A DNA stretch of 64,000 bases from positions 62,001 through 126,000 of the forward strand of contig JAHHHQ010000028.1 of assembly GCA_019359285.1 (NCBI GenBank). Direction: 5' to 3'. How positions within the stretch are numbered: the stretch's first letter is position 1; each line of letters begins with the position of its first letter. This stretch comes from Nodosilinea sp. WJT8-NPBG4. GTDB taxonomy: Bacteria > Cyanobacteriota > Cyanobacteriia > Phormidesmidales > Phormidesmidaceae. Under the pieces are notes generated by a model, which had not been told where the DNA came from, made no database searches, and saw nothing but the letters and a program-made list of their open reading frames with translations. The position numbers and the translations under genes were made by a program. Positions 42,212 to 63,364 of the stretch are shown one piece after another.

Positions 42212-44066
42212 TTAAGTAAGAGCAGCTGATGATTTAAATCGACCCCGTTCAGCTAAGCGAGCTCGTAAAGAGTCAAATGCTTCAATGGACTGTCCCAGGA
42301 GCCCTTCCCGTACACAGACTCGACACAGTTCAAAACCACTAGCTTGAGTGACCATAGCCCTCAAAGCTTGCGGCGTCACAATTCCATTAACTACAGGTAC
42401 CTTAACGGGGGCCAGCGCCGTTCCTGCTACGGTAGGAATAACTTCTAGTAAGGTGTCTTTATCTGCAGGTTTCACAACAATAATAGTGGGTAAAGTTTCG
42501 CTCACTTCTACAGTGAGAGGTTGGTGAGCCGCCTGAAAGATTACCATCTCAGGCTCAAGCACGGCGAACTCAGCGCTATTGGAATTATAAAAGCCATTGA
42601 GTGAGGCATCGGGTAAACCCCACAGTTCCTGCAAAAAAATTAGCCAGCCCTTCTGGTCATGGCACTGAGGTTGGTCGATTCCTCGTTGGCTGTAAATCGT
42701 AGCGCCAAAAAAATGACCCAAAATACACCAGGCGCGGCTATCGGTAACTATCTTATCTGCCAGCACAGTTGAGTGCAAAACATTGCCCTCAATAGGCAGT
42801 TCTAAGGCACCAATAGGGTTTTCCTCTAAAGTAATATCTGCATACAGGCGCTCTACCTGTGCCTCAAACATTAAATCAGCTAACGGTACTGAAAGTTCCA
42901 GCTGCGTCACATACAACGACCCAATTTGAGCAGGAAGGGAACCCTGCCAGTGCGATCGCACCAGGTCCTCTAAAACGGTTTGCGATCGTTTAGCAAAACC
43001 CTGGGCCTGAGCTTGAACTTCTAGAGCATTCAGGAAAACCGAAACTTTGGCTACCAACGCCGGCCATAGCTGCGTCCAGGTCGTTAATGAATGCCCTGCA
43101 GGTGACGGAACGCCATAAAATAAGTGATAAGCCACCACACTTGGGCAAATATTAGGAGCATATTCTTCACGGACTAAATCCAACAGAGAACACGGATTCT
43201 CACCCACCCCTAGGGCCAGTCCAGAAATCCACGCCAACCAATGTAGCTTTGCTGCTGCCCGCCCGTGAGGCGGCGCTCCTTGGGAATAGTCAGGATGTGG
43301 ATTGGGCACGCGAGGATCAGCCGTATGCCCTCGCTCAATTACCCGCAAACCATCAACAAAATTGGATCGCGTTCTTGAGGAGAGCGATCTAGGATAATTC
43401 CTGTAGTACCCCAAAACCTCATCAACTGCTTTAAACTGAGCTCCGCTCGGAGCTAGGCGTTGTATCAAGTCCCAGTCGTTACAGTTTTTCCAAAGCAACA
43501 TCAAAACATCCAACAGACTGAACCAACTGTTTCCGAGCAATACAGGCAATGAGATTAAAGGGACAGCGCTGCGCTGACTCTGCAAAGAGACTATCAAGCC
43601 CTTTATAAGTAACTTCGCCTATCAAAACTCCATCAGATGTGACTTTCTCTATACGGCAGACTACTACATCTAAACCGGGCATGAGGTTTAGCGGTGCCGT
43701 CATTTTTTCTAAATAACTAGCCGCAAGCGTATCATCTGCATCTAAAAACAACAGCCAATCGTACCGCGCGATCGCTATTCCAGTATTACGGGCAGCACTA
43801 ACGCCCTGATTCGGTTGGCTTACGGTACGAATGCGTTCATCCTGCGCTGCAAACTGAGCTGCTAGAGCAGGTGTGTTGTCATCAGACCCGTCGTCAACAA
43901 TAATTACCTCCCAATCAGGAACTGTTTGAGCCTGTACAGAAGCTACTGTTTGCCCAAGAGTAGATGCAGCATTGTAAGCTGGAAGAATGATAGAGACAGG
44001 AATATACTGACTATTTTTATTAGCAAAAAAATGAGAAATGAGATGCCCTAGAAAACCTTTAGACAT
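42212..44066 (-). pseudogene. GT2 glycosyltransferase with C-terminal unknown domain, frameshifted
   Basis: Two overlapping frames make one gene. The first (44066-43479) encodes a GT2 domain: SIILPAYNAASTLGQTV near residue 25, VDDGSDDN, and the nucleotide-sugar DxD in LFLDADD near 110. It stops just after GCFDVALEKL. The second frame continues with NDWDLIQRLAPSG, exactly where the intact paralogue at 44248 has CEDWDLWQRLARCG. The break is a run of five A (43485-43489, T on the plus strand); four A would restore one protein of about 615 residues. The 400-residue part after the GT2 domain matches the paralogue and has no known motif. The break may be a real mutation, phase variation or a sequencing error. 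Confidence 0.85.
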
Positions 44067-44247: not shown

Positions 44248-47200
44248 TTATTGTCCAGAATTGAGCTTGGTAATAAAGCTCTGCAAGCTGTCAGTACCAA
44301 AAATTTCTACACGGGGCAACGCCAGGGGATCATCGCTTAATTGACTGATTGCTGTATGACAGGTAACCCCAGCAGTATAGCCACAAGCTCCCATTAAAAA
44401 GGTAACAGCAGGATCGGCATCGCCATAGGGATAGGCTATGGTTCTGACAGGGCAGCCCAGTTTTTGCGTCAGGATCGTACGCGATCGCGCCCCTTCTTCA
44501 ACAATTTCGGTCAGAGAAAGACTTGTAAGCGGGCGGTGAGTAGCACTATGAGAGCCAAATTCGACGCCTTGCACTTGGAGTTGGCGGATGTGTTCCCAAT
44601 CCATCAGGGGCACCAGTTCACTATATTGAGCATCCCAGGCGTTGGTTTGTCCAACTCGCTCCGCCACCAAAAAAACCGTTGCAGAAAACCCGTACTCTTG
44701 CAGCAGTGGAAAGGCATAGGTAAAGAAATCTAGATAGCCATCATCAAAGGTGAGCACGATGGCTCTCCCCGGTAAAGGTTGCCTATCGGCAATTGCCTGT
44801 TGCCAAACCTCCAGCGTTACGCTGTAATAACCGGCATCTCGCAAGTAGCGCAGTTGCTCAGCAAAAGCCTCTGGCGTCAGCCGCCATTGACCCATGGTAG
44901 CGTCTCCCTCCGGAGCAACACGGTGATACATCAAGATAGGAAGGCGATCGGTAGTAACTGGAATGTTAGGTTGTCGATTGGGTATTCCTCCATTCCAAAG
45001 CACAGTTTCAGCAACCCGACTTGGTGGCGGGGTGGGTTGGGGCTGCTCAAGAATGATCGGGGCAGGCGGCTGCGACCACGACAAGTTGAAGAAACGAGAC
45101 CCGGTTTGCTTTTGAAATAGTTGGATGCGATACAGGGGAGTGCGGAGTTCTTGTACCAAGTGCAGAGAACTCACCTTAGAAAAAGTGTCGCTAATGCCTT
45201 TAGCCCCAAAAGGATGATCCCAGTCATAGCCAGGACGCTCAGGCTCATCTACAACGAGATGAGCATGGGCTGTCAGAAAGTAACCGCCAGAGGTTAGAGC
45301 TGAAGCCACCTTATGAGCAAAGCGATTAAGCGCTTTCCAGCCACCAATGTAGTACAGCACTTCGCTACAGACAATCAAATCTAGGGCAGACGGCAAGGGA
45401 TCTGCAGCCATATCCAACTGCTGAAAACGCACGTGAGGAAAGAGGGCACACCTTCTAGCCGCTCGCTCCACTGCAATTTCGGAGATATCGGTTGCGAGCA
45501 ATGACTGCACCTTTGGTGCCAGCTGGGCTGTGAAATGCCCTTCTGCACAAGCCAGTTCCAGGGCATTCTTTAGAGGTTTGTCGGGCAGAAGTTGCAGAGT
45601 TTGCTCATACTTGGTCTGTTCATAGTCAGTCGTGTATTTCCATGGATCTGGCTGACTCGCAAACAGGGTTTCAAAGTGGTCACGGTTATTAAAGGTGGTT
45701 TGCTTCTTTATGGCTAAGACTGAACTTGGATTCAAGGCATCTGAGGTCCCAACCCCGGCTGGGGCAATTGCGTTAGGAGCATACACCACTCGAATCACTG
45801 GCTGTTGTGCCTCTGGAATTTGAGCGATGGGTTCCTGGGTGACTTTGGCCATAGTCATCAAGGTCTCCGAAGCTGCCGTAGGCAAGGTGGCCCAGCGAGA
45901 ACCGCTAGAGCCAATAGGCGTAGGCCGTCGCCCTAGGACCAGCACCTGTGAAGGATTAGAAAGCTCTTGGGTGACCCAAGAGAGAAAAGGAGCCTGCCGC
46001 TGAGCTGCCTGCACTAACCGCTGGCGAAGAGGAGTTCCATCCATCCAGGATTGCCCGATCAAAGTTTCCCGAACGACAACGCGACACAACTCCATACCGG
46101 TTTCTAAGAGGATTGTCACCCGAAGAACTGCCGCTGAAATGCGACCTAGCTTGCCTGTAACAATAATTTCCCCTAAAGGAATCCCAGCCACTGTCACCAG
46201 GGCTGTTACCCCCCGGCCCACCCCCTTTAAGTGGGGTAGGGGCTTGCTGATTTCTAGGGTGATACGGTTTTCAGTGACTTTCACCGTTGAGGCGTTAGGC
46301 TCTCGCCGTTTGACATTATAAAAGTCTTCCTCCGACCAGTCGGGGCGATCCCACAGTTGCTGCAGGAAGGTTTCCCAGCCATGGCGATCATGGTATTCCC
46401 CTCGGGCCTGCTCCTCAGTCATATCAGAATGGTGACGATATACCGAAGCAGTAAGAAAATCCCCCAAAATTGGCCAAGCATATTGACTAGCTATGCGATC
46501 GCGCAATACATGCTGGGATACCCAACCCTCACAAATCGGTAAATCAACCATACCCAACGGCTTACCTGTCAGCGTAAGGGGACTACACAAACGATTAATC
46601 CCTGCTGGAGAAATAATGTCTGCAATCGGCTCTGTTATCTCTATGGGAACACTGTAGTGATACCCCATCTGAATCAATTCAGTCGCTTGAATATGCTGCA
46701 AAATCATTCGCTCTAAAATCAGGTTTGAACGATGGGCTAACTGAGATACTTGAGATGCTAGTTCTAAATCTACAAGAAATTGTTTGATCGGCTCTGACAG
46801 TTCCAGCCACACAGGCAAGCTTTCTTGAGGAGGACAGGCTTTTGGTAAGAGTACCGACTCAAATAAATTCTTGGCCACCCACCAAGCATCCAACCCTGGT
46901 GCCGGGCCATCTAATAAGTTCAGTAGATGTGTAACATCTTGGCCAGCCCCTAATACCAACCCGGCTGGCCAGATCGCCCATTGAAAACGACGAGTTTTCA
47001 AATCATGGACGACCAAACCATTGGCGTAAGCAGGATTCGGATTGGACACCCGAGGATCAGGAACATAAGCTCGGTTAAATACCTGTAGCCCATTCACAAA
47101 AAATTGTTTACCATTACCAGAAAGAGACTTAGGCCGCATTCGGTAGAAGGCCATAACCTCCGGAACTCCTCCAAAACGCTTGCCGCACCGTGCAAGCCGC

Positions 47201-47760
47201 TGCCACAAATCCCAATCTTCACAGGTGAGCATAGATGGGTCAAAACCACCAATTTCAGTAAAGATGGATCGCCGTACTATGCAAGAATGCATAGCTAATG
47301 GACAGTGACTAGCAAAATCAGCGAACAAATCAGGTGATTGGGAAGGGTGCTTTTCGCCCACATAATTGCCACAGGGTGTCACTCGCACCCAACCACAATG
47401 AACGAGATCAAGGGTTGGATCATCAACTATCTTCTCCAACATCCGCTCTAGGTACTGGGGGGCAATCCAGTCATCAGCATCCAGGAATAAAAGCCAATCA
47501 GCTCGAGCTATATTAGCCCCGGTGTTGCGAGCAGCACTTACCCCTTTATTTTCTTGTTTAATAACCTGTAAACGGCTGTCTTCTATACCGAGTCTTTTGG
47601 CCACTTCAAAAGTGCCATCCTGAGAACCGTCATCTACGACAATAGCTTCCCAACTCCCGATGGTTTGCCATTGTAATGACTCAACAGTTTTGGCCAAGGT
47701 ATTAGCAGCATTGTAAGCAGGAATAATAACGGAGATCAAGGGAGTAATAGGCTTATTCAT
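44248..47760 (-). CDS. Glycosyltransferase - unknown domain - methyltransferase - polysaccharide deacetylase fusion
   Basis: 1170 residues. Module 1 (about 8-230) is a GT2 glycosyltransferase with SVIIPAYNAANTLAKTV, DDGSQDG, DxD in FLDADDW near 92, and CEDWDLWQRL. Module 2 (about 235-625) is an unrecognised domain shared with the neighbouring broken paralogue. Module 3 (about 690-890) is a NodS-like SAM methyltransferase (NALELACAEGHFTAQLAP near 729). Module 4 (about 935-1165) is a NodB-like deacetylase: LMYHRV, the metal Asp pair in TFDDGY near 1003, and HSATH near 1068. No signal peptide or membrane helix is seen, so it should act in the cytoplasm on a glycan before export by the adjacent Wzm/Wzt. 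Probable roles are sugar addition, then deacetylation and methylation of an amino sugar; the substrate is unknown. Confidence 0.92.
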   Translation of the reverse strand: MNKPITPLISVIIPAYNAANTLAKTVESLQWQTIGSWEAIVVDDGSQDGTFEVAKRLGIEDSRLQVIKQENKGVSAARNTGANIARADWLLFLDADDWIAPQYLERMLEKIVDDPTLDLVHCGWVRVTPCGNYVGEKHPSQSPDLFADFASHCPLAMHSCIVRRSIFTEIGGFDPSMLTCEDWDLWQRLARCGKRFGGVPEVMAFYRMRPKSLSGNGKQFFVNGLQVFNRAYVPDPRVSNPNPAYANGLVVHDLKTRRFQWAIWPAGLVLGAGQDVTHLLNLLDGPAPGLDAWWVAKNLFESVLLPKACPPQESLPVWLELSEPIKQFLVDLELASQVSQLAHRSNLILERMILQHIQATELIQMGYHYSVPIEITEPIADIISPAGINRLCSPLTLTGKPLGMVDLPICEGWVSQHVLRDRIASQYAWPILGDFLTASVYRHHSDMTEEQARGEYHDRHGWETFLQQLWDRPDWSEEDFYNVKRREPNASTVKVTENRITLEISKPLPHLKGVGRGVTALVTVAGIPLGEIIVTGKLGRISAAVLRVTILLETGMELCRVVVRETLIGQSWMDGTPLRQRLVQAAQRQAPFLSWVTQELSNPSQVLVLGRRPTPIGSSGSRWATLPTAASETLMTMAKVTQEPIAQIPEAQQPVIRVVYAPNAIAPAGVGTSDALNPSSVLAIKKQTTFNNRDHFETLFASQPDPWKYTTDYEQTKYEQTLQLLPDKPLKNALELACAEGHFTAQLAPKVQSLLATDISEIAVERAARRCALFPHVRFQQLDMAADPLPSALDLIVCSEVLYYIGGWKALNRFAHKVASALTSGGYFLTAHAHLVVDEPERPGYDWDHPFGAKGISDTFSKVSSLHLVQELRTPLYRIQLFQKQTGSRFFNLSWSQPPAPIILEQPQPTPPPSRVAETVLWNGGIPNRQPNIPVTTDRLPILMYHRVAPEGDATMGQWRLTPEAFAEQLRYLRDAGYYSVTLEVWQQAIADRQPLPGRAIVLTFDDGYLDFFTYAFPLLQEYGFSATVFLVAERVGQTNAWDAQYSELVPLMDWEHIRQLQVQGVEFGSHSATHRPLTSLSLTEIVEEGARSRTILTQKLGCPVRTIAYPYGDADPAVTFLMGACGYTAGVTCHTAISQLSDDPLALPRVEIFGTDSLQSFITKLNSGQ

Positions 47761-47797: not shown

Positions 47798-49024
47798 TTA
47801 ACGGACCATTCGCCATCGTCCAGGCGGGTTCATAGTTCCTTGAGTATTGACGCTACAAGTGATTAATAGCGGATAAGCTTCCCAGTGATAGTCATAGGCA
47901 TATTCCCAATGTTCTTTAAACAAACCAATATTGACAAAATACTTTCCCTGAACCAAATCTAGTCGGTCTAATTCCAGAACAATAGTGCCAGAGCCATTAA
48001 GTTTTTCGATAGCAAACTCCATAGCACTAGTGTTGGTATCTAGACAATTCTGGCCATCTCCATAGCGAGTAATGCTGACATTGATTACTGGGGCAAGAAT
48101 AGGCTGAGAAGCAAAGTAGTCAATTTCAATATGCAGTGGATCTCCAGAAGAAATCTTATCCCCGGACTGCAAGCGTACAGCTTGAATTTCTGCCTCTAGG
48201 GAGCCAAAGCGGTTTTGATTAGTCTCCAATAAAATACCAGAAGAGGCCTTCACTGGGGGACAATTGGGTGTACGACGTTCAGTTTCAGCATGCATTTCTA
48301 CCTGATATTGACCCAATACCACCTCTGGCTCTCCTTGCGCAACAATTTGACCGTGCCGCAGCCAAATTGCTCGATCACAGAGTTCTTTAATCTGCTCAGG
48401 ACTATGGGAGATCAAGACGATCGCACACCCCTGCTTTTTTAATTCAGTAATACGGCGTAAGCACTTCGCCTGAAAAGCCAGATCCCCTACAGACAGAAAC
48501 TCATCTACTAACATCACATCTGGATGACTATGAACAGCAATGGCAAAGGCCAAACGCATTTGCATGCCAGTACTATACGTTCTAATAGGATTATCAATAT
48601 AGTCAGCCAGTTCGGCAAATTCCACAATCTCATCAAACTGATTCAAAACTGCCTGTCGAGATAGACCGCATACAATAGCGGAAACAAAAGTATTTTCTCG
48701 ACCAGTTAAGTCTCCATGAAAGCTAGAACCTAAATCTAACAAGGCACCTATCCGCCCATTAATACAAATACTACCCTGATCGGGTCTTCCAACTCCTCCA
48801 AGTAACCGCAAGAGGGTAGACTTTCCAGCACCGTTATGCCCAACGATACCGACCATCTCGCCCGAAAAGATGTCAAATGAAATATCTTTCAACGCATAAT
48901 AATACTGTCTCTTACGTAAATCTCTGAATCCTCCTAAAGCTGCCTCCATAAGAGTTGTCGGTTTTTTGAAGGAGCTTTTAGCAAACCTTTTACTTAGATT
49001 CTTAACTCGTATTGCAGGAAGCAT
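47798..49024 (-). CDS. wzt: Wzt-like ABC transporter ATPase with C-terminal glycan-binding-type domain
   Basis: 408 residues. ATPase domain (1-245): Walker A GHNGAGKST near 65, signature YSTGMQMRLAFA near 148, Walker B VMLVDEFLSVGD near 172, H-loop ISHS. This order with GALLDLGSSFHGDLTGREN is typical of polysaccharide and teichoic-acid exporters (KpsT/TagH/Wzt). Residues about 260-408 form a beta-rich Wzt C-terminal domain that in O-antigen systems reads the chain-end modification. This fits with a tailoring enzyme encoded just downstream. The permease is encoded upstream, beyond a glycosyltransferase gene. Confidence 0.93.
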   Translation of the reverse strand: MLPAIRVKNLSKRFAKSSFKKPTTLMEAALGGFRDLRKRQYYYALKDISFDIFSGEMVGIVGHNGAGKSTLLRLLGGVGRPDQGSICINGRIGALLDLGSSFHGDLTGRENTFVSAIVCGLSRQAVLNQFDEIVEFAELADYIDNPIRTYSTGMQMRLAFAIAVHSHPDVMLVDEFLSVGDLAFQAKCLRRITELKKQGCAIVLISHSPEQIKELCDRAIWLRHGQIVAQGEPEVVLGQYQVEMHAETERRTPNCPPVKASSGILLETNQNRFGSLEAEIQAVRLQSGDKISSGDPLHIEIDYFASQPILAPVINVSITRYGDGQNCLDTNTSAMEFAIEKLNGSGTIVLELDRLDLVQGKYFVNIGLFKEHWEYAYDYHWEAYPLLITCSVNTQGTMNPPGRWRMVR

Positions 49025-49101: not shown

Positions 49102-50160
49102 TTATCCCCACTTCAAGCAATGTATTTTAGAGTAGATATCAGCCATCTTATTAGCCACAATGTTATACTCATAATTCAAGGCTTTACTACGGCTGTTTTC
49201 AGCCATCTTCCTACATCTTTCATGATCATCTAGCAAAAGTAATATGCTATCCGCTAGCGCGTCAGAAGTCTTAGGCGGAACCAGAAGCCCATTGGCTTCA
49301 TCAACGTATTCTGGAGTTCCGCCAATATTAGTGGTTATTATTGGTAATCCACAAGCCATTGATTCCAAAATTGCATTATTAGCTGTAGCTTCTTGAAATG
49401 AGAAAACAGCAACTTGAGAGGTTTGATAAGCTTTTAGAAGTTCCTCATCAGTAATTCGATCAAGGAATAAGATTCGCTCATCATCTATATTCCCAAAATA
49501 GAATTTCTTATTGCTTCTCGCTCCGACAGCAACAAAATTTACATCTGGTTTGCTCTCCCATACCTGCTTAATTGCTTCTCCCAACGTATCAAAATCTCTT
49601 AAGTGAGAGCCTACAGTAATGCATACAGGGTTTAGAGGATAGTCACAAGGCGGCGAAAAGAAATCCGTATTTATTCCATGAGGAACTACAAATATTTTCT
49701 CCTTAGGAAAAACAGTTTCAAAGTAATATCTCTGTGATTCTGAGACCAAAATTACGGCATCTAAGTGTTGTGCAAATTTCTCGACAATACGATGCTTTTT
49801 TAAGTCCGGAGAGGGTTGATGGAAGGTGGCAATTAGTAAGTTATTGGTTAGTCGAGTCAAGTAGTTTAGTAGTAACAGATCAGAGTCTCCATAAAGAATA
49901 TGGTAAATCGATTTTTGGTTCGAGCACATATGCTTAAGGGAAGCCAGCTCTGTCAAAAATGCTCCTGGAGAATACCAGGCGTGGCCAGCAAGAAAATTTA
50001 CAGCTAGGGTGATATTCCAGCCTATTGGGCCCTTCATCCAGCGAAACTGAACTGGAGATTCTAAGTTTTTTCCGGTATATTGACAAAACCCTTCATAACC
50101 AGAATAACTGGCATGATGAGCATATCTAAGACCTATATAAAAGACATTTTTTTTTGACAT
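49102..50160 (-). CDS. GT4-like (GT-B fold) glycosyltransferase
   Basis: 352 residues. The C-terminal Rossmann domain has VFSFQEATANNAILESMACGLPIITTN near 255, the EX7E-type sugar-nucleotide site of GT4 enzymes, followed by GGTPEYVDEANGLLVPP. The N-terminal half is poorly conserved, with ILVSESQRYYFETVF and VPHGINTDFFSP near 155 as the domain link. It transfers a sugar to a growing glycan from a nucleotide sugar in the cytoplasm. It lies between the Wzt and Wzm genes, which places it inside the export operon. Base composition is visibly AT-richer than in the left half of the window. Confidence 0.9.
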   Translation of the reverse strand: MSKKNVFYIGLRYAHHASYSGYEGFCQYTGKNLESPVQFRWMKGPIGWNITLAVNFLAGHAWYSPGAFLTELASLKHMCSNQKSIYHILYGDSDLLLLNYLTRLTNNLLIATFHQPSPDLKKHRIVEKFAQHLDAVILVSESQRYYFETVFPKEKIFVVPHGINTDFFSPPCDYPLNPVCITVGSHLRDFDTLGEAIKQVWESKPDVNFVAVGARSNKKFYFGNIDDERILFLDRITDEELLKAYQTSQVAVFSFQEATANNAILESMACGLPIITTNIGGTPEYVDEANGLLVPPKTSDALADSILLLLDDHERCRKMAENSRSKALNYEYNIVANKMADIYSKIHCLKWG

Positions 50161-50267: not shown

Positions 50268-51080
50268 TCAAAGTTCTTCGACAAAGCTATAGCTTTTTTC
50301 CTTAAATAGCCTATAGCCAATAGGCAGAAATAAACCAATCATCAAAGTAACAATCATGAGGTTTAGTAGGTTAGGAGACTCTCCATACATCAGGATATTT
50401 CTATATGAACTCACAAGATGAACCAGGGGGTTTAGATAGTATAGAGATTTATAACCTAGCGGAATACTTTCAACCTCATAAAAAATAGGAGTTAGGTAAA
50501 ACAAAAGCTGTAGAACGACTCCAAGAGTGTGCTGTGTATCTCGAAACTTAACATTCAGTGATGCCAAAAAATAGGCTAAGGTTATAATCAACAAAAACTG
50601 AATAAGCTGTAAAGCAGGCACCCACAGCAAGTGAATACTGAAAATAGCTCCATCAAATATTAGAAATAATAAGAGAATAGGTAGTGCCAGCGTGAAATGG
50701 ATAAGCCCAGTTGTCACAATGACCACCGGGAGAATGGCAACTGGAAATCCAGGCTGTCTAATTAGAGAAATGTTGGCAATGATTACTCCTGTAGCCTGAA
50801 AAAGGCTGTTCTGGAACCAAGTCCATACCAATAAGCCTGTGAAGACAAATGAAGAATACTGAGGTACATCTACAGGTAAAACAACTTGAAAGATAAAGAT
50901 GAAAACAGCTAATTGTAAAAGAGGATTGATTAAAGTCCAGGCAATACCTAAAAAAGAGCGCTTGTAGAGAAGTTTAATTTCTCTATCAACTAAGCATTTT
51001 AGCAAGTCCTGGTAGTACTTCAAAGGTTTTTGGTATGAACTGAAAGTACTGCGGCGACGAAATCGAATGAATGCCATCAA
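50268..51080 (-). CDS. wzm: Wzm-like ABC-2 polysaccharide exporter permease
   Basis: 270 residues with about six membrane helices. An N-terminal amphipathic stretch (KPLKYYQDLLKCLVDREIKLLYKRSFLGIAWTL, here cited by residues 18-51) is the hallmark of ABC-2 permeases for polysaccharide export. PxFYEVESIP in the last periplasmic loop and NPLVHLVSSYRNILMYG near 220 fit the same family. It pairs with the Wzt-like ATPase encoded at 47798, one gene away, to move a lipid-linked glycan across the inner membrane. Confidence 0.92.
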   Translation of the reverse strand: MMAFIRFRRRSTFSSYQKPLKYYQDLLKCLVDREIKLLYKRSFLGIAWTLINPLLQLAVFIFIFQVVLPVDVPQYSSFVFTGLLVWTWFQNSLFQATGVIIANISLIRQPGFPVAILPVVIVTTGLIHFTLALPILLLFLIFDGAIFSIHLLWVPALQLIQFLLIITLAYFLASLNVKFRDTQHTLGVVLQLLFYLTPIFYEVESIPLGYKSLYYLNPLVHLVSSYRNILMYGESPNLLNLMIVTLMIGLFLPIGYRLFKEKSYSFVEEL

Positions 51081-51128: not shown

Positions 51129-53801
51129 TTAAGGTTTTGTCTTTAATTGAGATTTTTGAGAAGCATTAAACTCACCACACATATCCAGTTTTTTTCTTTC
51201 AATTAACCCAGTAAATAAATATAAAAAAAACTCAATTATGCCAATCAAGTGATTATAAATTTCTAAAAATATAAGTATCACGGGATATTGTGTCCGGCGC
51301 AGAATAGAGTCTTTCATTTTCATTATCTTTGACTTTGGTAGCCCAACAAACAATTCTGCTAAACTCCGCCAGTCTTTCTCAATAACAAATAGAGCGAGGT
51401 GATAGATAGAATACTGTCTAGAGCGTTGGCTCACTAGATGGTTTAAGGATTTTGCGTTGAATAATGTCTGAGCCTGAGCATAGCAGCTGGAGACATGTTG
51501 GATATGAAAGCCTTGTCTAATTAGTTTATAAAAGAAAAATCCATCTTCGGCTAGACCTTGAGCGCGGCTAACTACAGGTAGAGGATTTACTAGCCCAGAG
51601 CTCCTTAGAGCATCCATTCTAAAGGCCGCGTTGTCGGTACCTCCTATCCACCATACTGGTGAAGGCTTAAACCAGTACTTTTCAAGCCAGTCAGCATCAA
51701 GCACGCAGGGGGCAAAACCTAGATGAATTTTGTCATACCGGCTCAATTCCTGATATACCTGATCTCTATCTTCTAAAGTACAAGGTAATATGTTGCCTAC
51801 TACTCCACCGATAGAAGATCTGGCAAATGGAGCTGCTATTTCTTCTAGCCAATGCTGAGGCAGGCTTGCGATATTGCTACCCACCGTAATTAGAACGTCT
51901 CCAACTGCATTTTTCAGCCCTTTTTGCAAGAAGCTCTCATTTCCACATATATTTTCTATAACCAGATTAGGGAAATTACGAGGAAGCTCACTCAATTGAA
52001 TTAATACTGATTCACGCTTGATAATAATAACTTGATCAACAAAATTAACTTTTGAAATCTGATTACTGACTTCGCTTAAGAGCAAAGTTAGATAGTTATC
52101 TTCTGTATCAATTTTAATTAGAATAGAAAATCGGAGGTCGCCAGGGAATGGTTCCTCCAGAATGCCAACCGCTTTGAAGTTGAGAGACAAAGCATGATCA
52201 TTTTTAGCTACTGCTTGGAGTAGAGATTCGCTCTTTGCGTTATGAATGGATGCGGGTTCTTCCTCTAAAAAACCGCAATATAGGCGATCAAAGATAAGCC
52301 GTCTTAGCCGGCTAGCATGAATAGATTGAAAGTTATTTTCTACAACCAGGTCACTGATTAAATGCCGATTTTTCTGAACATATATGTGTGTTTTAGAATA
52401 GTTTGAAGCATGAGATAAAGTATAAAAATCCTGGTCGAGATCAATGATTTCGACTAGGGTATCTGCCGTTACTCCAGAAGAGTTTTCAGGAGCAAGAGCG
52501 ATTTCCAATTCACTATCGTTAGACGGCATTACAGTGGTCTGGTGACCAAAATCTTTTTCAATTTCCTTGACTCTCTCTAAAGCTAGTTTATAATTCCTAA
52601 AGCCCCCAATACATCCTTTGATTTCAGCTAAAATAAGATCCCGAGGGTATTGACCAGGACGTATTAAGGAAGTCAAAAGTCGGCGAAGATGCCAAGAAAC
52701 CATCCAAACTATGCCAAGCTTTAAAAAGGATAATGATTCATCTGGGTACCGCCTAACTCCAGCAAGCATATAGGAGTAGGATCCACCGTTTCCTGCTAAC
52801 TGTGATCGAAGTTTCTCATAGCTTTTTCGATGTCGATGGCGAACCATTGCTTTAGGTTGGTATGCTAAAGCATGGCCTTCTTTAATAACTCTAAAGAACA
52901 TTTCTTGATCGCCACCGCCGTTGGTTGGCGTGCCCACATCTAAAGCTGGATTGAAGAAACCAACATCCTTAAAAACACTGCGTCGATAGGCCATGTTAGC
53001 TCCGGCGCCATAATTGCCTGCGCCTAAATACCACCAAGGTAATTTATCCCCTCGCTTAACATGAAAACGTCGATATTCAAATCCTTTCCCAAATCCTCCC
53101 CCCATTTCAAATAAAACTTGGGCTTTTGCCTCGAGTTCGTAAGGTACAATCAGACCTGTTACAGCCATTACTTCTGCATCTTCAGAAAAGACTCTTACAA
53201 GCTGCTTAACCCAAGCTGGATCAACTAGCACGTCATCATCGGTGTAAGCGATAATTTCACTGCGAGATTCTAAAATTGCCCTATTTCTAGCCCAATCTAA
53301 ACCTGGTCTTGGTTCTGATACATAACGCACCAGAGAACGATAAGTTTCCACAACTTCCTTTATAAGCTCATTCTTTGGAGCATTATCAACAACTAAGATG
53401 TCTAAGTTGGAATAGTCTAATTGACAAAGGGCATCTAAGCACATTTTCAAGTCATCTGGGCGATCACGAGTACACACAGCTACTGTCACAGAGGGCCACT
53501 CGTTTAAATCTTCAACACGAGGAAGGCTAGACAATGTTTTTAAGACTGGATTAGTCAATTCTGAAGCTGATGCTCTACCTTGCTCCAACATGCTCGTAAA
53601 AATTGAGCTTGAATATTGCTCTGCGATTATCTTCCTCAAAGTAGTAGCAGTGCAACGCCGTGAAGAAACGGGCGCTTTTACGTATCCTAAAGGCGTACCA
53701 TACAAACGAATTAACCCCTGTATCGCAGCATAGCCTTCCAAATCATCAAATGTAGGGATAGGCTGACTTAATTCAATTTCTACAACTTTTATGGGATGCA
53801 T
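51129..53801 (-). CDS. Two-domain glycosyltransferase (GT2 plus degenerate GT2)
   Basis: 890 residues. After an N-terminal segment of about 95 residues, the first GT2 domain (about 100-340) has VTVAVCTRDRPDDLKMCLDAL, LVVDNAP, and the acidic YTDDDV near 193, followed by GGGDQEMFFRVIKEG near 290. A second GT2-like domain (about 545-820) keeps the fold-like order and WIGGTDNAAFRMDALR near 705 and LAEDGFFFYKLIRQG, but at the DxD position it reads TVGSN, so donor binding is doubtful. A hydrophobic C-terminus (about 840-870) may contact the membrane. It likely builds part of the glycan exported by Wzm/Wzt. Composition is AT-rich. The Wzm gene follows after 48 bases. Confidence 0.9.
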   Translation of the reverse strand: MHPIKVVEIELSQPIPTFDDLEGYAAIQGLIRLYGTPLGYVKAPVSSRRCTATTLRKIIAEQYSSSIFTSMLEQGRASASELTNPVLKTLSSLPRVEDLNEWPSVTVAVCTRDRPDDLKMCLDALCQLDYSNLDILVVDNAPKNELIKEVVETYRSLVRYVSEPRPGLDWARNRAILESRSEIIAYTDDDVLVDPAWVKQLVRVFSEDAEVMAVTGLIVPYELEAKAQVLFEMGGGFGKGFEYRRFHVKRGDKLPWWYLGAGNYGAGANMAYRRSVFKDVGFFNPALDVGTPTNGGGDQEMFFRVIKEGHALAYQPKAMVRHRHRKSYEKLRSQLAGNGGSYSYMLAGVRRYPDESLSFLKLGIVWMVSWHLRRLLTSLIRPGQYPRDLILAEIKGCIGGFRNYKLALERVKEIEKDFGHQTTVMPSNDSELEIALAPENSSGVTADTLVEIIDLDQDFYTLSHASNYSKTHIYVQKNRHLISDLVVENNFQSIHASRLRRLIFDRLYCGFLEEEPASIHNAKSESLLQAVAKNDHALSLNFKAVGILEEPFPGDLRFSILIKIDTEDNYLTLLLSEVSNQISKVNFVDQVIIIKRESVLIQLSELPRNFPNLVIENICGNESFLQKGLKNAVGDVLITVGSNIASLPQHWLEEIAAPFARSSIGGVVGNILPCTLEDRDQVYQELSRYDKIHLGFAPCVLDADWLEKYWFKPSPVWWIGGTDNAAFRMDALRSSGLVNPLPVVSRAQGLAEDGFFFYKLIRQGFHIQHVSSCYAQAQTLFNAKSLNHLVSQRSRQYSIYHLALFVIEKDWRSLAELFVGLPKSKIMKMKDSILRRTQYPVILIFLEIYNHLIGIIEFFLYLFTGLIERKKLDMCGEFNASQKSQLKTKP

Positions 53802-53818: not shown

Positions 53819-54925
53819 CTAAACTTTAGAAATTACTTGATGTAATGCTTGTCCTAATAAGACTTTCAAAAAAGTTTTTATCTTATTTTTCCTAGGCGTA
53901 TAAACTAAGTTGTTTATTTCTGAGATACCACTCTTCAAATCTCTTCCAAAATCGCTATCTGATTTTAGGGCAGGAATAGACTTTAAAGTGCGTCTAAACA
54001 GAATTGGTTTGATTACTAATAGTATAGTCAGAGGTCTCATTAAAAAAATAGCTGGATAAGCTTTAATTGCCTCTTTAAACCACAAAATCTTAGATGAAAC
54101 ACAATCAGATTGATTGGCTAAGTATAAATAGAAGCTACTGCGCGACAGACTTAGAAGGTAACTAGGGAAATTGGGGTGGCGCCGATTTACTGCATTTAAA
54201 ATATATTGTTGAGATCTAGCCATTTGGTTAAGGTCTTTAGACATAGTGCCAAAAATCTTGCGATACCCAACCAGAAATTCTGGCACTACTTCAAACTCAT
54301 AATGTTCTGCCAACCGCAAGTATAAATCCCAATCTTCACAGCCTTGAGCATTATTTAATTTCAGATTTGAGTCATATCCGCCTATAAAATCAATACATTT
54401 CTTACGAATCATAGTCGCACTAGCATTACCTAAAAAGTAGTGGCATATCAACGTTTTAAGAACGTTGCCAGTAATTTTGGCTGCTTGGAAACCATCCGTT
54501 GGCTTACTATACTCATCAATATCCAATGTCCAAACGTAGATTACACCGGTACTAGGCGAACTAGCCCTAAATTTGAGGATAGCTTTTTCAATGGCATTTG
54601 GGAACCATATATCATCTGCATCAAGGGGAACGATAAACTCTCCACGGGCTTCTTTAATGCCCTGGTTTCGGGCCGCTGCCACTCCTAAATTGGGCTGTTG
54701 AATTAGCTTGATTCGATCGTCTTCCAAAGCCAAATTCCTGACAATGTCGGGGGTGCGATCGAAAGACCCATCATCAATTACCAGTACCTCAATTGAGCTA
54801 TGGGTTTGGTTAAGGACTGAAAGTAGGGTTTGAGCAATGAATTTTTCGGCGTTATAGGCTGGAATGATGACTGAGACTAGAGGCTTATCAGGAATAAACG
54901 CGGTCTGAAGAAATTCATAAGCCAT
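53819..54925 (-). CDS. GT2 glycosyltransferase
   Basis: 368 residues. SVIIPAYNAEKFIAQTLLSVL near residue 18, VIDDGSFDRT near 49, NQGIKEARGEFIVPLDADDIW (DxD near 102) and GCEDWDLYLRLAE near 195 give a full GT2 domain over about 15-230. The remaining 130 residues are helical and basic with weak hydrophobic stretches. It starts 14 bases after the FAD-oxidoreductase stop and ends 17 bases before the two-domain glycosyltransferase, so it is tightly packed in the polysaccharide operon. Confidence 0.93.
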   Translation of the reverse strand: MAYEFLQTAFIPDKPLVSVIIPAYNAEKFIAQTLLSVLNQTHSSIEVLVIDDGSFDRTPDIVRNLALEDDRIKLIQQPNLGVAAARNQGIKEARGEFIVPLDADDIWFPNAIEKAILKFRASSPSTGVIYVWTLDIDEYSKPTDGFQAAKITGNVLKTLICHYFLGNASATMIRKKCIDFIGGYDSNLKLNNAQGCEDWDLYLRLAEHYEFEVVPEFLVGYRKIFGTMSKDLNQMARSQQYILNAVNRRHPNFPSYLLSLSRSSFYLYLANQSDCVSSKILWFKEAIKAYPAIFLMRPLTILLVIKPILFRRTLKSIPALKSDSDFGRDLKSGISEINNLVYTPRKNKIKTFLKVLLGQALHQVISKV

Positions 54926-54939
54926 CTCGATCTGATCCG

Positions 54940-56448
54940 TTAGGAAAACAGAGTGGGTGAAGCAATACCCGGCCTAGATACGTTGATTTCAGTGGACAGG
55001 CTGTTAGGCCGCTGCCGCCGATTCCACTCTTCATCGGTAAAGTTTTCCTGGTAAGATCGCTCCACGTTCACATTCCAAATGTCGTGGTCTTCGCCCAAAA
55101 TATTCTTTGCTGCCAGCAGTGCCGTCAGCATCGAGTGGTCTTGGTTGTTATAGCGGTGCATGCCATTACGGCCCACCGTTTGCAGATTCTCAAAGGTCAT
55201 CACGTAGTCTTGCAGCACCTGCAAGTGTTGGCGATACTCCCCGTCGTAAACTGGGTAAGCCTTGCGTTGGCGAATCACACAGCCATCTTCCACATTGCCG
55301 GGCTTCACTCCCAGGTTAAGACCGATAATTTCCTGAGTGGCTAAGTCAACTAGCTCTGCTTCCGACATGTCCCAGAGGTCATCGCCTTCGTTACAAAAAT
55401 ACTCCATACCTAGGCAGGTTTTGCTGGGGTCAGGTACCATCGCCGGGCTCCAGTTCTTAAAGTTTTGGATGCGCCCCACTCGAAAGTCAGGGCTGTGGAT
55501 GTAAAGCCAGTTATCGGGGAAGAGCTGGTCGCGGTTAACAATCAGCGAGACAATCAAAAAGTCGCGATACTTTAGCCCTCTCGCTGCGGCCAGCACCTCC
55601 TCCGGAGGCAGGGGGCGCAGACGGTGAACGAGAGCTGCGATCGGCATAGAGTTAATGAAATGGTTGCCGGTCAGCTCAAGGGTTTCATTGCCCTGCTGGG
55701 CAATCACCTTAGTAATGCGATGGCCCTCTCGCTCAACTCGCACCACCTTAGTATTGAGATGAACAGGGGAGCCCTGAGCTTCAACGATTTCCTGGCAGCG
55801 TTCCCACATCATGCCGGGGCCTAAGAGTGGGTAGTCAAATTCTTTAATCAAACTCTTGGCGTTCTGGCTACCAAAGAGGGCGTTGATTACGGCCCGCTTG
55901 AGCGACATGTCTTTAATGCGCTGCGCTGCCCAGTCGGCCCGAATTTGATTGCAGGGGATGCCCCAGACTTTTTCGGTATAGGTTTTAAAGAAAGTTTGAT
56001 ACAACCGGTTGCCAAAGCAGTCAACAACCCATTCCTCAAAAGTTTCGGCTTCTATGTTGAGATGTAGATATTTTTTGAATTTGGCTTTGAGATAGCTGAG
56101 CAAAATCAGCAAACTGCGCAGAGGCCCCAAATTATTTAGGGTTTTGAAAAGAGAAAGGGGGTAGTCATAAAACTTACCGTCGTAATAAATTCGTGATAAT
56201 CGGGGCACCCGAATAAATTGATCACCTAAGATTTCTTGCCAGAGCGCGTTAACTTCATCAACCTTAGTAAAAAAGCGATGACCCCCGATGTCAAACCGAT
56301 AATCTTTATAGGTCTCGGTACGGGAAATTCCGCCTACTCGATCTGCCTGTTCAAGTACTACAGACTTGAGACCATGCTTCTGCAGTTCGTAGGCAGCAGT
56401 TAAGCCCGCTGGCCCTGCCCCAATAATGACAACGGGATAATCATTCAT
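54940..56448 (-). CDS. FAD-dependent amine-oxidase-fold oxidoreductase, UDP-galactopyranose-mutase-like
   Basis: 502 residues. The N-terminal dinucleotide motif VVIIGAGPAGLTAAYELQKHG starts at residue 5 (21 residues, shortened here to GAGPAGLTAAYEL), followed by the FAD-phosphate motif LEQADRVGGISRTETY and DIGGHRFF near 55, as in UDP-galactopyranose mutases and related HemY-like enzymes. MHRYNNQDHSMLTALLAA near 445 is the C-terminal FAD segment. In polysaccharide clusters such proteins change or rearrange a sugar nucleotide. The exact reaction cannot be read. It follows hpsJ and leads into the glycosyltransferases with a 14-base gap. Confidence 0.88.
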   Translation of the reverse strand: MNDYPVVIIGAGPAGLTAAYELQKHGLKSVVLEQADRVGGISRTETYKDYRFDIGGHRFFTKVDEVNALWQEILGDQFIRVPRLSRIYYDGKFYDYPLSLFKTLNNLGPLRSLLILLSYLKAKFKKYLHLNIEAETFEEWVVDCFGNRLYQTFFKTYTEKVWGIPCNQIRADWAAQRIKDMSLKRAVINALFGSQNAKSLIKEFDYPLLGPGMMWERCQEIVEAQGSPVHLNTKVVRVEREGHRITKVIAQQGNETLELTGNHFINSMPIAALVHRLRPLPPEEVLAAARGLKYRDFLIVSLIVNRDQLFPDNWLYIHSPDFRVGRIQNFKNWSPAMVPDPSKTCLGMEYFCNEGDDLWDMSEAELVDLATQEIIGLNLGVKPGNVEDGCVIRQRKAYPVYDGEYRQHLQVLQDYVMTFENLQTVGRNGMHRYNNQDHSMLTALLAAKNILGEDHDIWNVNVERSYQENFTDEEWNRRQRPNSLSTEINVSRPGIASPTLFS

Positions 56449-57445: not shown

Positions 57446-60028
57446 CTACGCGAAGTAGTTGGTCACCGTCAAAGTCCCAGCGGTAGAGTCACTCCCGGCC
57501 ATCCCTATGCCCGTGACTTCGGCCACTAGGTCCGTGCCTTTAGAAAAAGCAGCGTTACCGTCGTTGACCGATAGAAACGTGCGGGTTCCCCAGCGGAAGA
57601 ATACCGCTTGGGAACCCGCCATAGCTTGTGCTCCACTAGAAGTTTGACTTTTATCTTGGTAGGCAGCCACCGCGGCCTGCTCTAAAGTTGTGCCGGTCTT
57701 CAAGCCAGCATTAAATAGGCCCCCTGGCCGCTCAGAGGTGAGCAAATTGTTGTTGTAGTCGAGCTGAATGCGATCGCCCTGGGTGGCATCAAAGCCCACA
57801 ATGCGATCGAGCGCCGCTAGGGTTGACTGGCCAAAAGCCTCGGCCTGCGATCGGCCGGTGTAAACAATGCGATCGGCTCCAGGACCGCCAGTTAGTATGT
57901 CGGCTCCACCTAGACCCAAAAGGGTATCGTTGCCGCTGCTCCCAGAAAAGCTATTGATTGCTGAATTGCCCAAAAGCAGATCGTTACCGCTACCGCCATA
58001 AGTCAGCAACCCGCCCCGTTCAAAAGCCCCCACGTCGGGTAAAGAGTCACGAGTAAACTGTCGCTGGTCTTGGGTAGGTATACCAGTGCCTTTCACTCCG
58101 GTGTTGATCGCTGGGCTACCGGACAGCAGCGGATGTACCAAATCATCGCCAATCTTCATTAGCGGACCCAGTAGTGGATCGACAATGCGACTACTAGCAG
58201 CCACACGCGGGCCAGAATTTACTGGCGCTGGAAACTCAATATTGCCGCCGCCATCGCGGGGGGTGTAGCCGACTTGGTTCTGCCTCGCATCAACCGCCCT
58301 ATTAAAAGCGACAATCGAATTACGCAGGGTAATCGAGTCTTTATTGCTGCTGTTCATCCACAGTGCTCCGTTAGCGCGTCCAGCAAAGTTGTTGACAAGG
58401 GTGGAGTTGGTAATGTTAACAGGAGCAGCAGCACTGGTATTTAGAAACATTGCCCCCCCAGCATCATTGTTGACCCGGTTGGTAGAAAAGGTGCTGTTAG
58501 AAATAGTGACAGACTGCCCGGTCTGAACCCAGAGACCTCCGCCTTGCTTCTCTGCAACATTGTTGGCCACACCTACATTACGCAGTGTAACGGTGCCGCC
58601 GTTGACCTCTAGCCCGCCACCGCGAGCCAGATTTTGGCTGCTGAGAGACACCGCGTTTTTCAGCAGAGTACTGTTTTCGACCACTAGCTTATCGGTGCCA
58701 TAGCTGTAGATATACAGCGCGCCACCCCCGCCTTTGGCTTGGTTTCCCTCAAAGCTGCTGCCCTCAATTCGAATAGTTCCCCCTGAGGTGGTGCCTGGGC
58801 CACCTGGACCAGCGCCATCGCTAAATAATGCGCCACCGCCTTCACCAATGGCAGTATTGTTTAGAAAAGTCGAGTTTTTAACCGTAACGGGTGACGAAAT
58901 ATTGTAGACAGCACCTCCATTGAACCCTCGATTGTTAGTAAAGCGAGAGTTCTCAATCACCATAAAGCCTAGCCCGCCTGGCCCGCCCGCACTGTTAGTG
59001 GAGATTGCCCCACCGCTTTTGCCGTTGTTGGTTAAGGTGCCGTCGTTGCTGTCAAAGACGCTGTTCAGAATGGTGACCTGAGCTCCAGAACCCACCTGCA
59101 GCGCCCCACCGCGGCCCGCCCTGTTGTTTTTAAGCAAGGTGTCAACCAGCGTGACGCTGACAAAGTTAGCACCGTTGATGGCCCCCCCCATACCCGGAAC
59201 TTGAGCACCCTGGCCGTTGCCGTCGACTAAGGTCAACCCTTTGAAAGTCGCCTGCACAGGGGTTTGCGAGGTACCCACCTGAAAAATGCGGCTGCTGCTG
59301 TTGCCACTAAGGGTTAGATTAGACACCCCGCTGCCGTCGATAGTAATGTTGCGGTCTAAAAAGATCTCACCGCTGGTGAGCTTGATAGTGGTGTTAGCCA
59401 GGGTTGTGGCAAATTTAATCACGCTGCCAACGGGGGCGGCAGCAATGGCGGCCCTTAGCGAACCGGGGCCACTGTCAGCGGTGCTGGTAACCGTGACAAT
59501 ATTCAGGTTCTCACTATAGTTAGCTTGCGCCTCGGTGCTAAAGACCGAAGTCGCTTCTACTGTGCCTGAGAACACTTCAAACTCCCAGTCACCGCCACCA
59601 CCTGTAATGTCGTCAGAGGCCGCTACATCGGCCTGGGTCCACTGGCTGAAACGATTGACAAAATCCAGGCCACTGCGGCCAAACCCTACATTACAGCCGT
59701 AAAGCAGAAAATCAGCCCCATCGTTGAGCGATCGCTGCCACTGGCTTAGCTGCGAACCATAGCTGTCGAGGGTGTTGGCATTAAGCGCCGTTGCGCCCAA
59801 CGTCAGCCCGCCCGCTTCACCGTGGGAGAGTAGGTGGATACTGTCCAGGCCAGAGCGCGATCGCAGCGCCTCTGTAATTTGGCCAATACCATCCTGAGCC
59901 GAGTCGAGAAACACGACATCTAGGCCAGGGTTGAGGCCTTTGATCAAGGTATTGGCATCGGCGATTGAGTCATCTACAAAGACAATGCCTTTAATCAAAC
60001 TAGGAACACTTTGAGTTTGAGTCGTCAT
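57446..60028 (-). CDS. Large secreted protein: DUF4347, beta-helix and calcium-binding repeats
   Basis: 860 residues without a signal peptide. The N-terminal DUF4347 domain (about 10-175) has VFVDDSIADANTLIKGL, IHLLSHGEAGGLTLG and LLYGCNVGFG. Residues about 180-640 form a right-handed beta-helix of the pectate-lyase/Pmp type, with repeated NSTFxxN and GGGA motifs. The C-terminal region (about 690-860) has RTX-like Ca-binding nonapeptides (GSSGNDTLLGLGGADILTGGPGADRI). The layout suggests type I secretion and attachment at the cell surface. The function, for instance adhesion or a role in the sheath, is unknown. The gene sits between two HpsJ-containing blocks. Confidence 0.88.
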   Translation of the reverse strand: MTTQTQSVPSLIKGIVFVDDSIADANTLIKGLNPGLDVVFLDSAQDGIGQITEALRSRSGLDSIHLLSHGEAGGLTLGATALNANTLDSYGSQLSQWQRSLNDGADFLLYGCNVGFGRSGLDFVNRFSQWTQADVAASDDITGGGGDWEFEVFSGTVEATSVFSTEAQANYSENLNIVTVTSTADSGPGSLRAAIAAAPVGSVIKFATTLANTTIKLTSGEIFLDRNITIDGSGVSNLTLSGNSSSRIFQVGTSQTPVQATFKGLTLVDGNGQGAQVPGMGGAINGANFVSVTLVDTLLKNNRAGRGGALQVGSGAQVTILNSVFDSNDGTLTNNGKSGGAISTNSAGGPGGLGFMVIENSRFTNNRGFNGGAVYNISSPVTVKNSTFLNNTAIGEGGGALFSDGAGPGGPGTTSGGTIRIEGSSFEGNQAKGGGGALYIYSYGTDKLVVENSTLLKNAVSLSSQNLARGGGLEVNGGTVTLRNVGVANNVAEKQGGGLWVQTGQSVTISNSTFSTNRVNNDAGGAMFLNTSAAAPVNITNSTLVNNFAGRANGALWMNSSNKDSITLRNSIVAFNRAVDARQNQVGYTPRDGGGNIEFPAPVNSGPRVAASSRIVDPLLGPLMKIGDDLVHPLLSGSPAINTGVKGTGIPTQDQRQFTRDSLPDVGAFERGGLLTYGGSGNDLLLGNSAINSFSGSSGNDTLLGLGGADILTGGPGADRIVYTGRSQAEAFGQSTLAALDRIVGFDATQGDRIQLDYNNNLLTSERPGGLFNAGLKTGTTLEQAAVAAYQDKSQTSSGAQAMAGSQAVFFRWGTRTFLSVNDGNAAFSKGTDLVAEVTGIGMAGSDSTAGTLTVTNYFA

Positions 60029-62419: not shown

Positions 62420-63364
62420 CTAAGAAATGTCGTGTACCTTATGCCTAGAATTATTGTTTGCTCGCTCAACCATCGCCATCATGGCGTAGTAATACGCTGT
62501 AAGTAATAAGCTCACAAAGATCTGGCCGCCCCAAAAGCCGTGCCAAAAATTAAACCACCATTCGCCCCAGTAAACGTGAGCGATAGTGACCAGCATTAGC
62601 CGGGGAATGTTAAAAAGAAGCGAAATAATTACTGCAACAGAAATTAATAACGCCATCTGCCGAGGTTTTTGTTTATAAAGAATGCCCATAATAAAACCGG
62701 TGGCGGCGATCGATAGAGCCATGTCTAAACCATTGCAGCCCCAGCCCACCTCAACCGCTCCTTTGGGAAAGGTAATATAAACCCCCTCCTGTACTGCTGG
62801 AAAGCCGATCGCCCGCATAGCCGCACTACTGATCTCGGCCATCTTGATTTCTAGAAATTGGTAAGGAGCAAAAAAGTCCCACAAAAAGCGAGAGACAAAG
62901 CCAATGCGCGGGTAGGTAGTCAGGCCAATTAAAAACGTTGGCACTATAAAGCGGGTAAAAAAGATAGCGCCCCAGGTGCTACAGGCAATGCCTGCCAAAA
63001 TTATCAGCCACAAAAAGGCTTGGGGCCAGAGGGCAAAGCGGCAAAACGGAAACAGGACCGCCGCACAGACAATCAGCAGATGCCCCAATAGGCGATCTTC
63101 TTCTGAAGCCGAGAGCTTTTGCAGCACCACACGGCGATTCCACAACTCGGCGACGGCTATCCCCAGCATACATAGCACCAAAAACCAGCCCACTTTGCCC
63201 CGCAGTGCCCTAGGCATCAAGTAGCCTAGCCAAGCTGGCAGGTAGACTAGCCCAACCGTTAGCCCCAGCAGCACAAAGCGCCCGTGGGTGTCTTTAGCTA
63301 GGCTGACTATCCAGCCCTGAATAGTTTGCAGGTGAAACTTGAGATTTAGGGTTGGGACTGCCAT
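62420..63364 (-). CDS. Cyanoexosortase (exosortase-family protein-sorting enzyme)
   Basis: 314 residues with about eight membrane helices. The exosortase catalytic triad is visible: Cys in VGWGCNGLD near 209, Arg in FNIPRLMLV near 253, and His in FWHGFWGG near 273. Exosortases cleave PEP/PTPA-CTERM signals in the membrane, in parallel with Gram-positive sortases, and most are tied to extracellular polysaccharide. Two PTPA-CTERM proteins are encoded directly downstream and HpsJ upstream. The subtype (A, B or C in cyanobacteria) is not decided here. It is followed on the minus strand by the frameshifted PTPA-CTERM gene. Confidence 0.92.
   Translation of the reverse strand: MAVPTLNLKFHLQTIQGWIVSLAKDTHGRFVLLGLTVGLVYLPAWLGYLMPRALRGKVGWFLVLCMLGIAVAELWNRRVVLQKLSASEEDRLLGHLLIVCAAVLFPFCRFALWPQAFLWLIILAGIACSTWGAIFFTRFIVPTFLIGLTTYPRIGFVSRFLWDFFAPYQFLEIKMAEISSAAMRAIGFPAVQEGVYITFPKGAVEVGWGCNGLDMALSIAATGFIMGILYKQKPRQMALLISVAVIISLLFNIPRLMLVTIAHVYWGEWWFNFWHGFWGGQIFVSLLLTAYYYAMMAMVERANNNSRHKVHDIS

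What the first reader, a model, noticed from the sequence alone, without database searches (positions are those of the whole stretch)
44248..47760. One polypeptide joining a GT2 glycosyltransferase, an unknown domain, a NodS-like methyltransferase and a NodB-like deacetylase
Rhizobial Nod-factor enzymes NodC, NodS and NodB are separate proteins that act on one chito-oligosaccharide. Here a GT2 domain, a NodS-like methyltransferase and a NodB-type deacetylase (TFDDGY and HSATH) lie on a single 1170-residue chain, beside Wzm/Wzt with a glycan-reading C-terminal domain. This suggests a coupled build, deacetylate and N-methylate line for an amino-sugar glycan in a cyanobacterium. The motifs are visible; the shared substrate is inference.
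Basis: partly seen in the sequence, partly recalled or inferred. Interest (0 to 1): 0.78.

Follow-up and report, generated by a model that had tools for sequence, protein, structure and literature searches.

The report
Fused glycan-capping enzyme with N-methyltransferase
A single cyanobacterial protein really does join a sugar-adding, an acetyl-removing and a methyl-adding enzyme next to a glycan exporter; the same fusion occurs across many bacterial phyla, and comparative evidence suggests it makes a methylated amino-sugar cap on an exported glycan, although no studied member was found.

Summary
One intact 1170-codon ORF (44248-47760, minus strand) encodes GT2, a helical part, an unclassified two-fold-repeat domain X, a NodS-family methyltransferase (MT) and a CE4 deacetylase, with catalytic residues present. 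It lies in a one-way gene run with Wzm and Wzt, whose C-terminal glycan-binding domain is present.

It is not a misassembly. Nearly all of the best 80 database loci carry the same fusion, across cyanobacteria, Planctomycetes, Bacteroidota, Acidobacteriota and rhizobia. NCBI already names it [quoted passage not shown], so the architecture is known; I found no functional study.

Corrections: the deacetylase is PgaB/IcaB/PplD-like (NodB2 topology), not NodB; the GT2 is not NodC-like; the MT is a clade separate from NodS.

New support for coupling: 25 of 25 clear NodS-family MTs in sampled cyanobacteria lie with a deacetylase. The CE4 triad is intact in 38 of 41 MT-bearing homologues and lost in every MT-less one read, including over 20 that carry a sulfotransferase instead of the GT2. 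Best reading: cytosolic addition of a HexNAc-type sugar, deacetylation, then N-methylation, making a cap that Wzt reads here. Deacetylation then N-methylation is well supported; the cap role is inference.

The parts
44248..47760 (-). trifunctional ORF (GT2-helical-X-MT-CE4), 1170 aa
   Evidence: AF2 model pLDDT 88.4, pTM 0.76
47119..47742 (-). GT2 domain, residues 7-214; DxD/ED motifs conserved
   Evidence: Foldseek nearest heparosan/chondroitin polymerase GT2 domains
46681..47112 (-). helical part, residues 217-360, follows GT2 in most homologues
45799..46674 (-). domain X, residues 363-654: two-fold internal repeat (E 7.5e-9), in no Pfam/NCBIfam/PHROGs family, no Foldseek PDB match at E<=0.001
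45106..45684 (-). NodS-family SAM methyltransferase domain, residues 693-885
44263..44958 (-). CE4 deacetylase domain (PgaB/IcaB/PplD-like, NodB2 topology), residues 935-1166; MYH, TFDDG, HSATH, YPYG motifs
47798..49024 (-). Wzt: ABC ATPase plus C-terminal glycan-binding domain (Wzt_C), nearest solved relative A. aeolicus Wzt
49102..50160 (-). GT4-type glycosyltransferase
50268..51080 (-). Wzm ABC-2 permease
51129..53801 (-). 890-aa GT2 protein with a weak half X repeat at its N-terminus
   Evidence: weak, 18 bits; 23-24 bits in relatives
53819..54925 (-). GT2 glycosyltransferase
54940..56448 (-). FAD amine-oxidase-type protein in the same run of genes
42212..44066 (-). tandem paralogue GT2-helical-X without MT/CE4, split by one single-base frameshift near 43475-43500

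Best explanation
The protein is a soluble cytosolic capping enzyme for an exported glycan. The GT2 domain adds a sugar, most likely an N-acetylated hexosamine, to a lipid-linked glycan. The CE4 domain removes its acetyl group and the NodS-family domain N-methylates the freed amine. Beside Wzm/Wzt, as here, the N-methyl amino sugar is most likely the non-reducing-end cap that stops growth and is read by the Wzt C-terminal domain before export. Shown: domains, residues, fusion, gene context, and co-retention of MT with a live CE4. Inferred: the substrate, N- rather than O-methylation, and the terminal/cap role.
For: Conserved fusion and residues. In a class-wide sample, all 25 clear PF05401 matches sit with a deacetylase: 4 fused to CE4, 21 beside or fused to PIG-L; the same pairing occurs in nodB-nodC-nodS and PIG-L+MT on plasmids. 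CE4 triad intact in 38/41 MT-bearing homologues; lost in all MT-less ones read: over 20 sulfotransferase-X-CE4 proteins of one lineage, and GT2-X-CE4 in L143. NodS methylates only after deacetylation at the non-reducing end (PMC5080398). Known cap enzymes join MT and GT modules beside Wzm/Wzt: WsaE (PMC2943079), K. pneumoniae O7 (PMC11231755). Nearest solved Wzt binds a methylated cap, and its lid Trp362 aligns with a Trp here (PMC9445017). No signal or membrane segment found.
Against: Two MT-bearing homologues (L070, L094) have a dead CE4 and no other CE4 in the fetched locus; a third (L106) has a separate live CE4 gene. The MT-less homologues amount to two lineages, so the co-retention is few events (collapsed Fisher p about 0.01). 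36 loci pair the fusion with an MsbA-type exporter that has no cap-reading domain, and Mesorhizobium loci have neither, so a Wzt-read cap cannot be the universal role. Close relatives of this Wzt domain also occur in three sampled genomes without the CE4. Of the cap-pocket residues checked only the Trp is kept (T346 to N, A348 to G; Leu300 was not checked). Sugar specificity of the GT2 is unknown.
Confidence: 0.45

Rival explanations
1. Same chemistry, but the product is a short oligosaccharide or glycolipid with an internal or decorative N-methyl hexosamine, not an export cap; Wzm/Wzt or MsbA-type exporters merely move it.
For: Most loci outside this clade carry an MsbA-type full exporter and several GTs (36 loci), without any cap-reading domain.
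Against: In this genus and several other loci the exporter is Wzm/Wzt, with the Wzt cap domain detected by BLAST in 8 of 11 distinct loci; in the 292-genome sample all 7 genomes with this CE4 clade also have this Wzt domain.
Confidence: 0.27
2. The MT is an O-methyltransferase that caps the glycan, and the CE4 acts on a different residue; the domains are only co-inherited.
For: Known Wzm/Wzt caps are O-methyl or (methyl)phosphate groups or Kdo (PMC9445017; PMC3482155); two homologues keep MT with a dead CE4.
Against: NodS-family MTs are with a deacetylase in 25 of 25 sampled cases; CE4 is dead where the MT is absent.
Confidence: 0.15
3. The domains have unrelated jobs in one gene cluster and are fused only for co-expression; no shared substrate.
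For: Fusions can be selected for stoichiometry; the X and CE4 domains occur with other N-terminal partners.
Against: Order and composition are kept over very distant phyla, with correlated fate of MT and CE4 activity.
Confidence: 0.1

Closest known systems
NCBI PGAP name 'trifunctional glycosyltransferase/class I SAM-dependent methyltransferase/polysaccharide deacetylase' (e.g. WP_013334356.1, Gloeothece verrucosa)
   Same: Same order of domains over 99% of the query, 45% identity
   Different: Only an automatic name; no substrate, structure or mutant was found in the paper library
NodB-NodC-NodS (Nod factor enzymes)
   Same: Deacetylation then N-methylation logic; NodS is the closest named MT family
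   Different: Separate proteins; NodB is distant in sequence and of the other CE4 topology; MT clades are separate; the GT2 is not a membrane-embedded synthase
WsaE of Geobacillus stearothermophilus; WbdD of E. coli O9a; K. pneumoniae O7 ORF6
   Same: Multi-module cap enzymes of Wzm/Wzt systems with an MT in the chain
   Different: O-methyl or methyl-phosphate caps; no deacetylase module is described for them
PgaB/IcaB/PplD GlcNAc deacetylases
   Same: Closest CE4 sequences and folds
   Different: Those are stand-alone or otherwise fused enzymes that act outside the cytosol (own knowledge); here the domain has no export signal and is fused to GT2 and MT
PIG-L deacetylase + NodS-like MT + acyl-CoA dehydrogenase (+ GT) clusters
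   Same: Same MT family beside a deacetylase, often with a GT
   Different: Different deacetylase family; separate genes as a rule

Membership tests
NodS (NCBIfam NF041650 equivalog) | Score at or above curated cut-off 300 | tested here: not met
   77.9 bits
NodS superfamily (PF05401) | Score over gathering 24 | tested here: met
   68.1 bits
NodS | Groups inside the NodS clade | tested here: not met
   Fusion MTs, PIG-L-linked MTs and NodS form three groups (99/97, 98/90, 100/100; NodS branch long, only 3 NodS rows)
NodB (TIGR04243) | Score at or above 240 | tested here: not met
   21.1 bits
CE4 NodB2 topology | MT5 motif (MYH) at the N-terminus before TFDDG | tested here: met
   ILMYH at 942-946, TFDDG at 1004-1008 (criterion from PMC10967932)
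CE4 active deacetylase | Asp base and Asp-His-His metal triad | tested here: met
   D1006, D1007, H1071, H1075; activity itself not testable
PgaB (TIGR03938) | Score at or above 321.9 | tested here: not met
   96.5 bits, N-terminal part only
NodC / processive GT2 | Membrane-embedded synthase | tested here: not met
   Highest 19-residue hydropathy 1.74, in strands of X; no membrane segment
ABC-transporter-dependent chain terminator | Encoded beside Wzm and a Wzt with C-terminal glycan-binding domain | tested here: met
   Wzt domain detected in 8 of 11 distinct Wzt loci
ABC-transporter-dependent chain terminator | Modifies the non-reducing end and is required for export | not testable with these tools
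   needs glycan structure and a mutant
PGAP trifunctional GT/MT/deacetylase architecture | GT2, class I MT and CE4 in this order on one chain | tested here: met

The most novel reading that the evidence does not exclude
An N-methylated amino sugar serves as an export-licensing cap for ABC-transported glycans, made by one polypeptide that deacetylates and then methylates. NodB/NodS chemistry would then be one rhizobial case of a widespread 'unmask the amine, then methylate' cassette, in which NodS-family MTs have been paired with three unlike deacetylases (NodB, PIG-L, PgaB-like CE4).
Probability: 0.3. Interest if true: 0.75.

Novelty: new variant of a known kind. Interest (0 to 1): 0.55.

Why it matters
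If right, it adds N-methyl amino sugars to the known caps that license export of ABC-dependent glycans, gives a first functional hypothesis for a multi-phylum enzyme family known only by an automatic name, and places Nod-factor N-methylation within a broader bacterial pattern. The sulfotransferase homologues with a dead deacetylase are a ready natural control.

Tried and rejected
Misassembly or gene-fusion artefact: rejected. NodB membership: rejected. Viral origin: no relative in viral contigs. An N-deacetylase/N-sulfotransferase-like role of the sulfotransferase-X-CE4 proteins: considered when the shared X and CE4 were found, then rejected because their CE4 metal residues are lost (TFDGG, GSM/L). 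Known fold for X: no Foldseek PDB match at E<=0.001 and VIA-align best Z 5.2 on the helical part only; X was not folded alone, so a new fold is not claimed. Strict link between this Wzt domain and the CE4: not strict, 3 of 10 genomes with close matches lack it. Four weak PF05401 matches (44-49 bits) were set aside; one (L181) is an AMP-binding/reductase enzyme by Pfam. Keyword searches for the fusion or for N-methylglucosamine in O-antigens found nothing directly relevant.

Full report
Observation. ORF 44248-47760 on the minus strand is intact, 1170 aa. Pfam finds GT2 (120 bits), NodS-type methyltransferase (68 bits) and CE4 deacetylase (90 bits) in that order. My own profiles divide it into GT2 7-214, helical 217-360, X 363-654, MT 693-885, CE4 935-1166. 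AlphaFold2 on 41 homologues gives pLDDT 88.4 and pTM 0.76, with low confidence only in linkers and at the N-terminus. No membrane segment is seen. The gene is 37 bases downstream of Wzt in a one-way run: FAD protein, GT2, GT2, Wzm, GT4, Wzt, this gene.

Spread. Two other genomes of the genus (56-57%) and one of another family (49%) have the full protein. A scan of species genomes gave 80 loci, nearly all with GT2, MT and CE4 fused, in cyanobacteria, Brocadia, Verrucomicrobia, Bacteroidota, Acidobacteriota, Myxococcota and many rhizobia; some come from metagenome bins and their taxon may be wrong. Within cyanobacteria it is rare and patchy: 2 of 292 sampled genomes have MT and CE4 fused, and in the genus only the window's genome and two others were found. 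PGAP already names it 'trifunctional ...' in Gloeothece, Sulfitobacter and Rhizobium. The phrase search for 'trifunctional glycosyltransferase' listed no paper with it, and a combined keyword search found none.

Domain identity. MT: NodS model 77.9 bits, next 23.7, but under the equivalog cut-off of 300. On a tree the fusion MTs, PIG-L-linked MTs and NodS are three separate groups, with NodS on a long branch. CE4: PgaB 96.5, IcaB 54.5, NodB 21.1; nearest structures PplD and PgaB. The MYH motif comes first, which is the NodB2 topology described in PMC10967932. So 'NodB-type' holds only in the loose sense of 'CE4'.

Is deacetylation tied to methylation? First, in a class-wide sample of cyanobacteria 29 PF05401 matches were found. 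All 25 with at least 55 bits have a deacetylase: 4 in this fusion, 21 beside or fused to PIG-L with an acyl-CoA dehydrogenase gene. Plasmid records show PIG-L + MT in Bradyrhizobium, Deinococcus, Acinetobacter, Komagataeibacter, Novosphingobium and Legionella, and nodB-nodC-nodS in R. etli. NodS is known to act only after deacetylation at the non-reducing end (PMC5080398). Second, a natural control: in one other cyanobacterial family, proteins beside Wzm/Wzt carry a sulfotransferase, then the same X (hhalign E 2.7e-84) and a CE4 related to this one, but no MT. All those read have TFDGG, and where the second motif is covered they have lost the first metal His. A GT2-X-CE4 protein without MT in L143 is also dead (TFDDE, GSR). 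With the MT, 38 of 41 keep the triad. The three exceptions are L106, which has a separate live CE4 gene in the cluster, and L070 and L094, which do not in the fetched stretch. The MT-less set is two lineages, so this counts as few events.

Exporter and cap. Eleven distinct loci have Wzt, 36 an MsbA-type exporter, none both; Mesorhizobium loci have neither. In the 292-genome sample the seven genomes with this CE4 clade all have this Wzt domain, against four without the CE4 (Fisher p about 1e-11 without correction for kinship); three of those four are close matches. Much of this is linkage within one cluster. The nearest solved Wzt is that of Aquifex, whose domain reads 3-O-methyl mannose through Trp362 (PMC9445017); by alignment, with a one-residue numbering offset that I inferred, a Trp is kept here while T346 and A348 are changed. 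Enzymes that cap such glycans can be multi-module with MTs: WsaE, K. pneumoniae O7 ORF6. This makes a cap role here plausible, not shown, and not universal for the family.

X. It is an internal two-fold repeat, in no Pfam, NCBIfam or PHROGs family, and in the 292-genome sample X was found only in genomes with these proteins. It is reduced or undetected in rhizobial forms, so it is not essential to the chemistry. A role as glycan- or partner-binding adaptor is a guess.

Verdict. A real, conserved and automatically named fusion of unknown function. The contribution here is evidence that the methyltransferase and the live deacetylase belong together, a corrected family placement, and a testable cap hypothesis.

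Noticed in passing
window 42212-44066 (-): Tandem paralogue GT2-helical-X, without MT and CE4, broken by one frameshift inside the GT2 with homology continuing across it: recent pseudogene or assembly error.
   Followed up: partly
L175-L178, L189, L192-L225: Sulfotransferase-X-pseudo-CE4 proteins beside Wzm/Wzt; in several loci Wzt is 690 aa and in L176 Pfam finds a sulfotransferase domain after its glycan-binding domain: an ATPase fused to a modifying enzyme.
   Followed up: partly
L231 (G504): X-GT2-helical-X protein of 852 aa with X on both sides of the GT2.
   Followed up: no
window 51129-53801 (-) and L185, L187: Weak half X repeat at the N-terminus of a neighbouring 860-910 aa GT2 protein.
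   Followed up: partly
window 57446-60028 (-) and L185:4608-7424: DUF4347 surface-type protein near this kind of Wzt in two genomes.
   Followed up: no
window 62420-63364 (-): Exosortase gene near the glycan cluster.
   Followed up: no
L048: Fusion gene 67% identical to the window's (MT-CE4 part) in a contig binned as Sterolibacterium, probably a mis-binned cyanobacterial contig.
   Followed up: no
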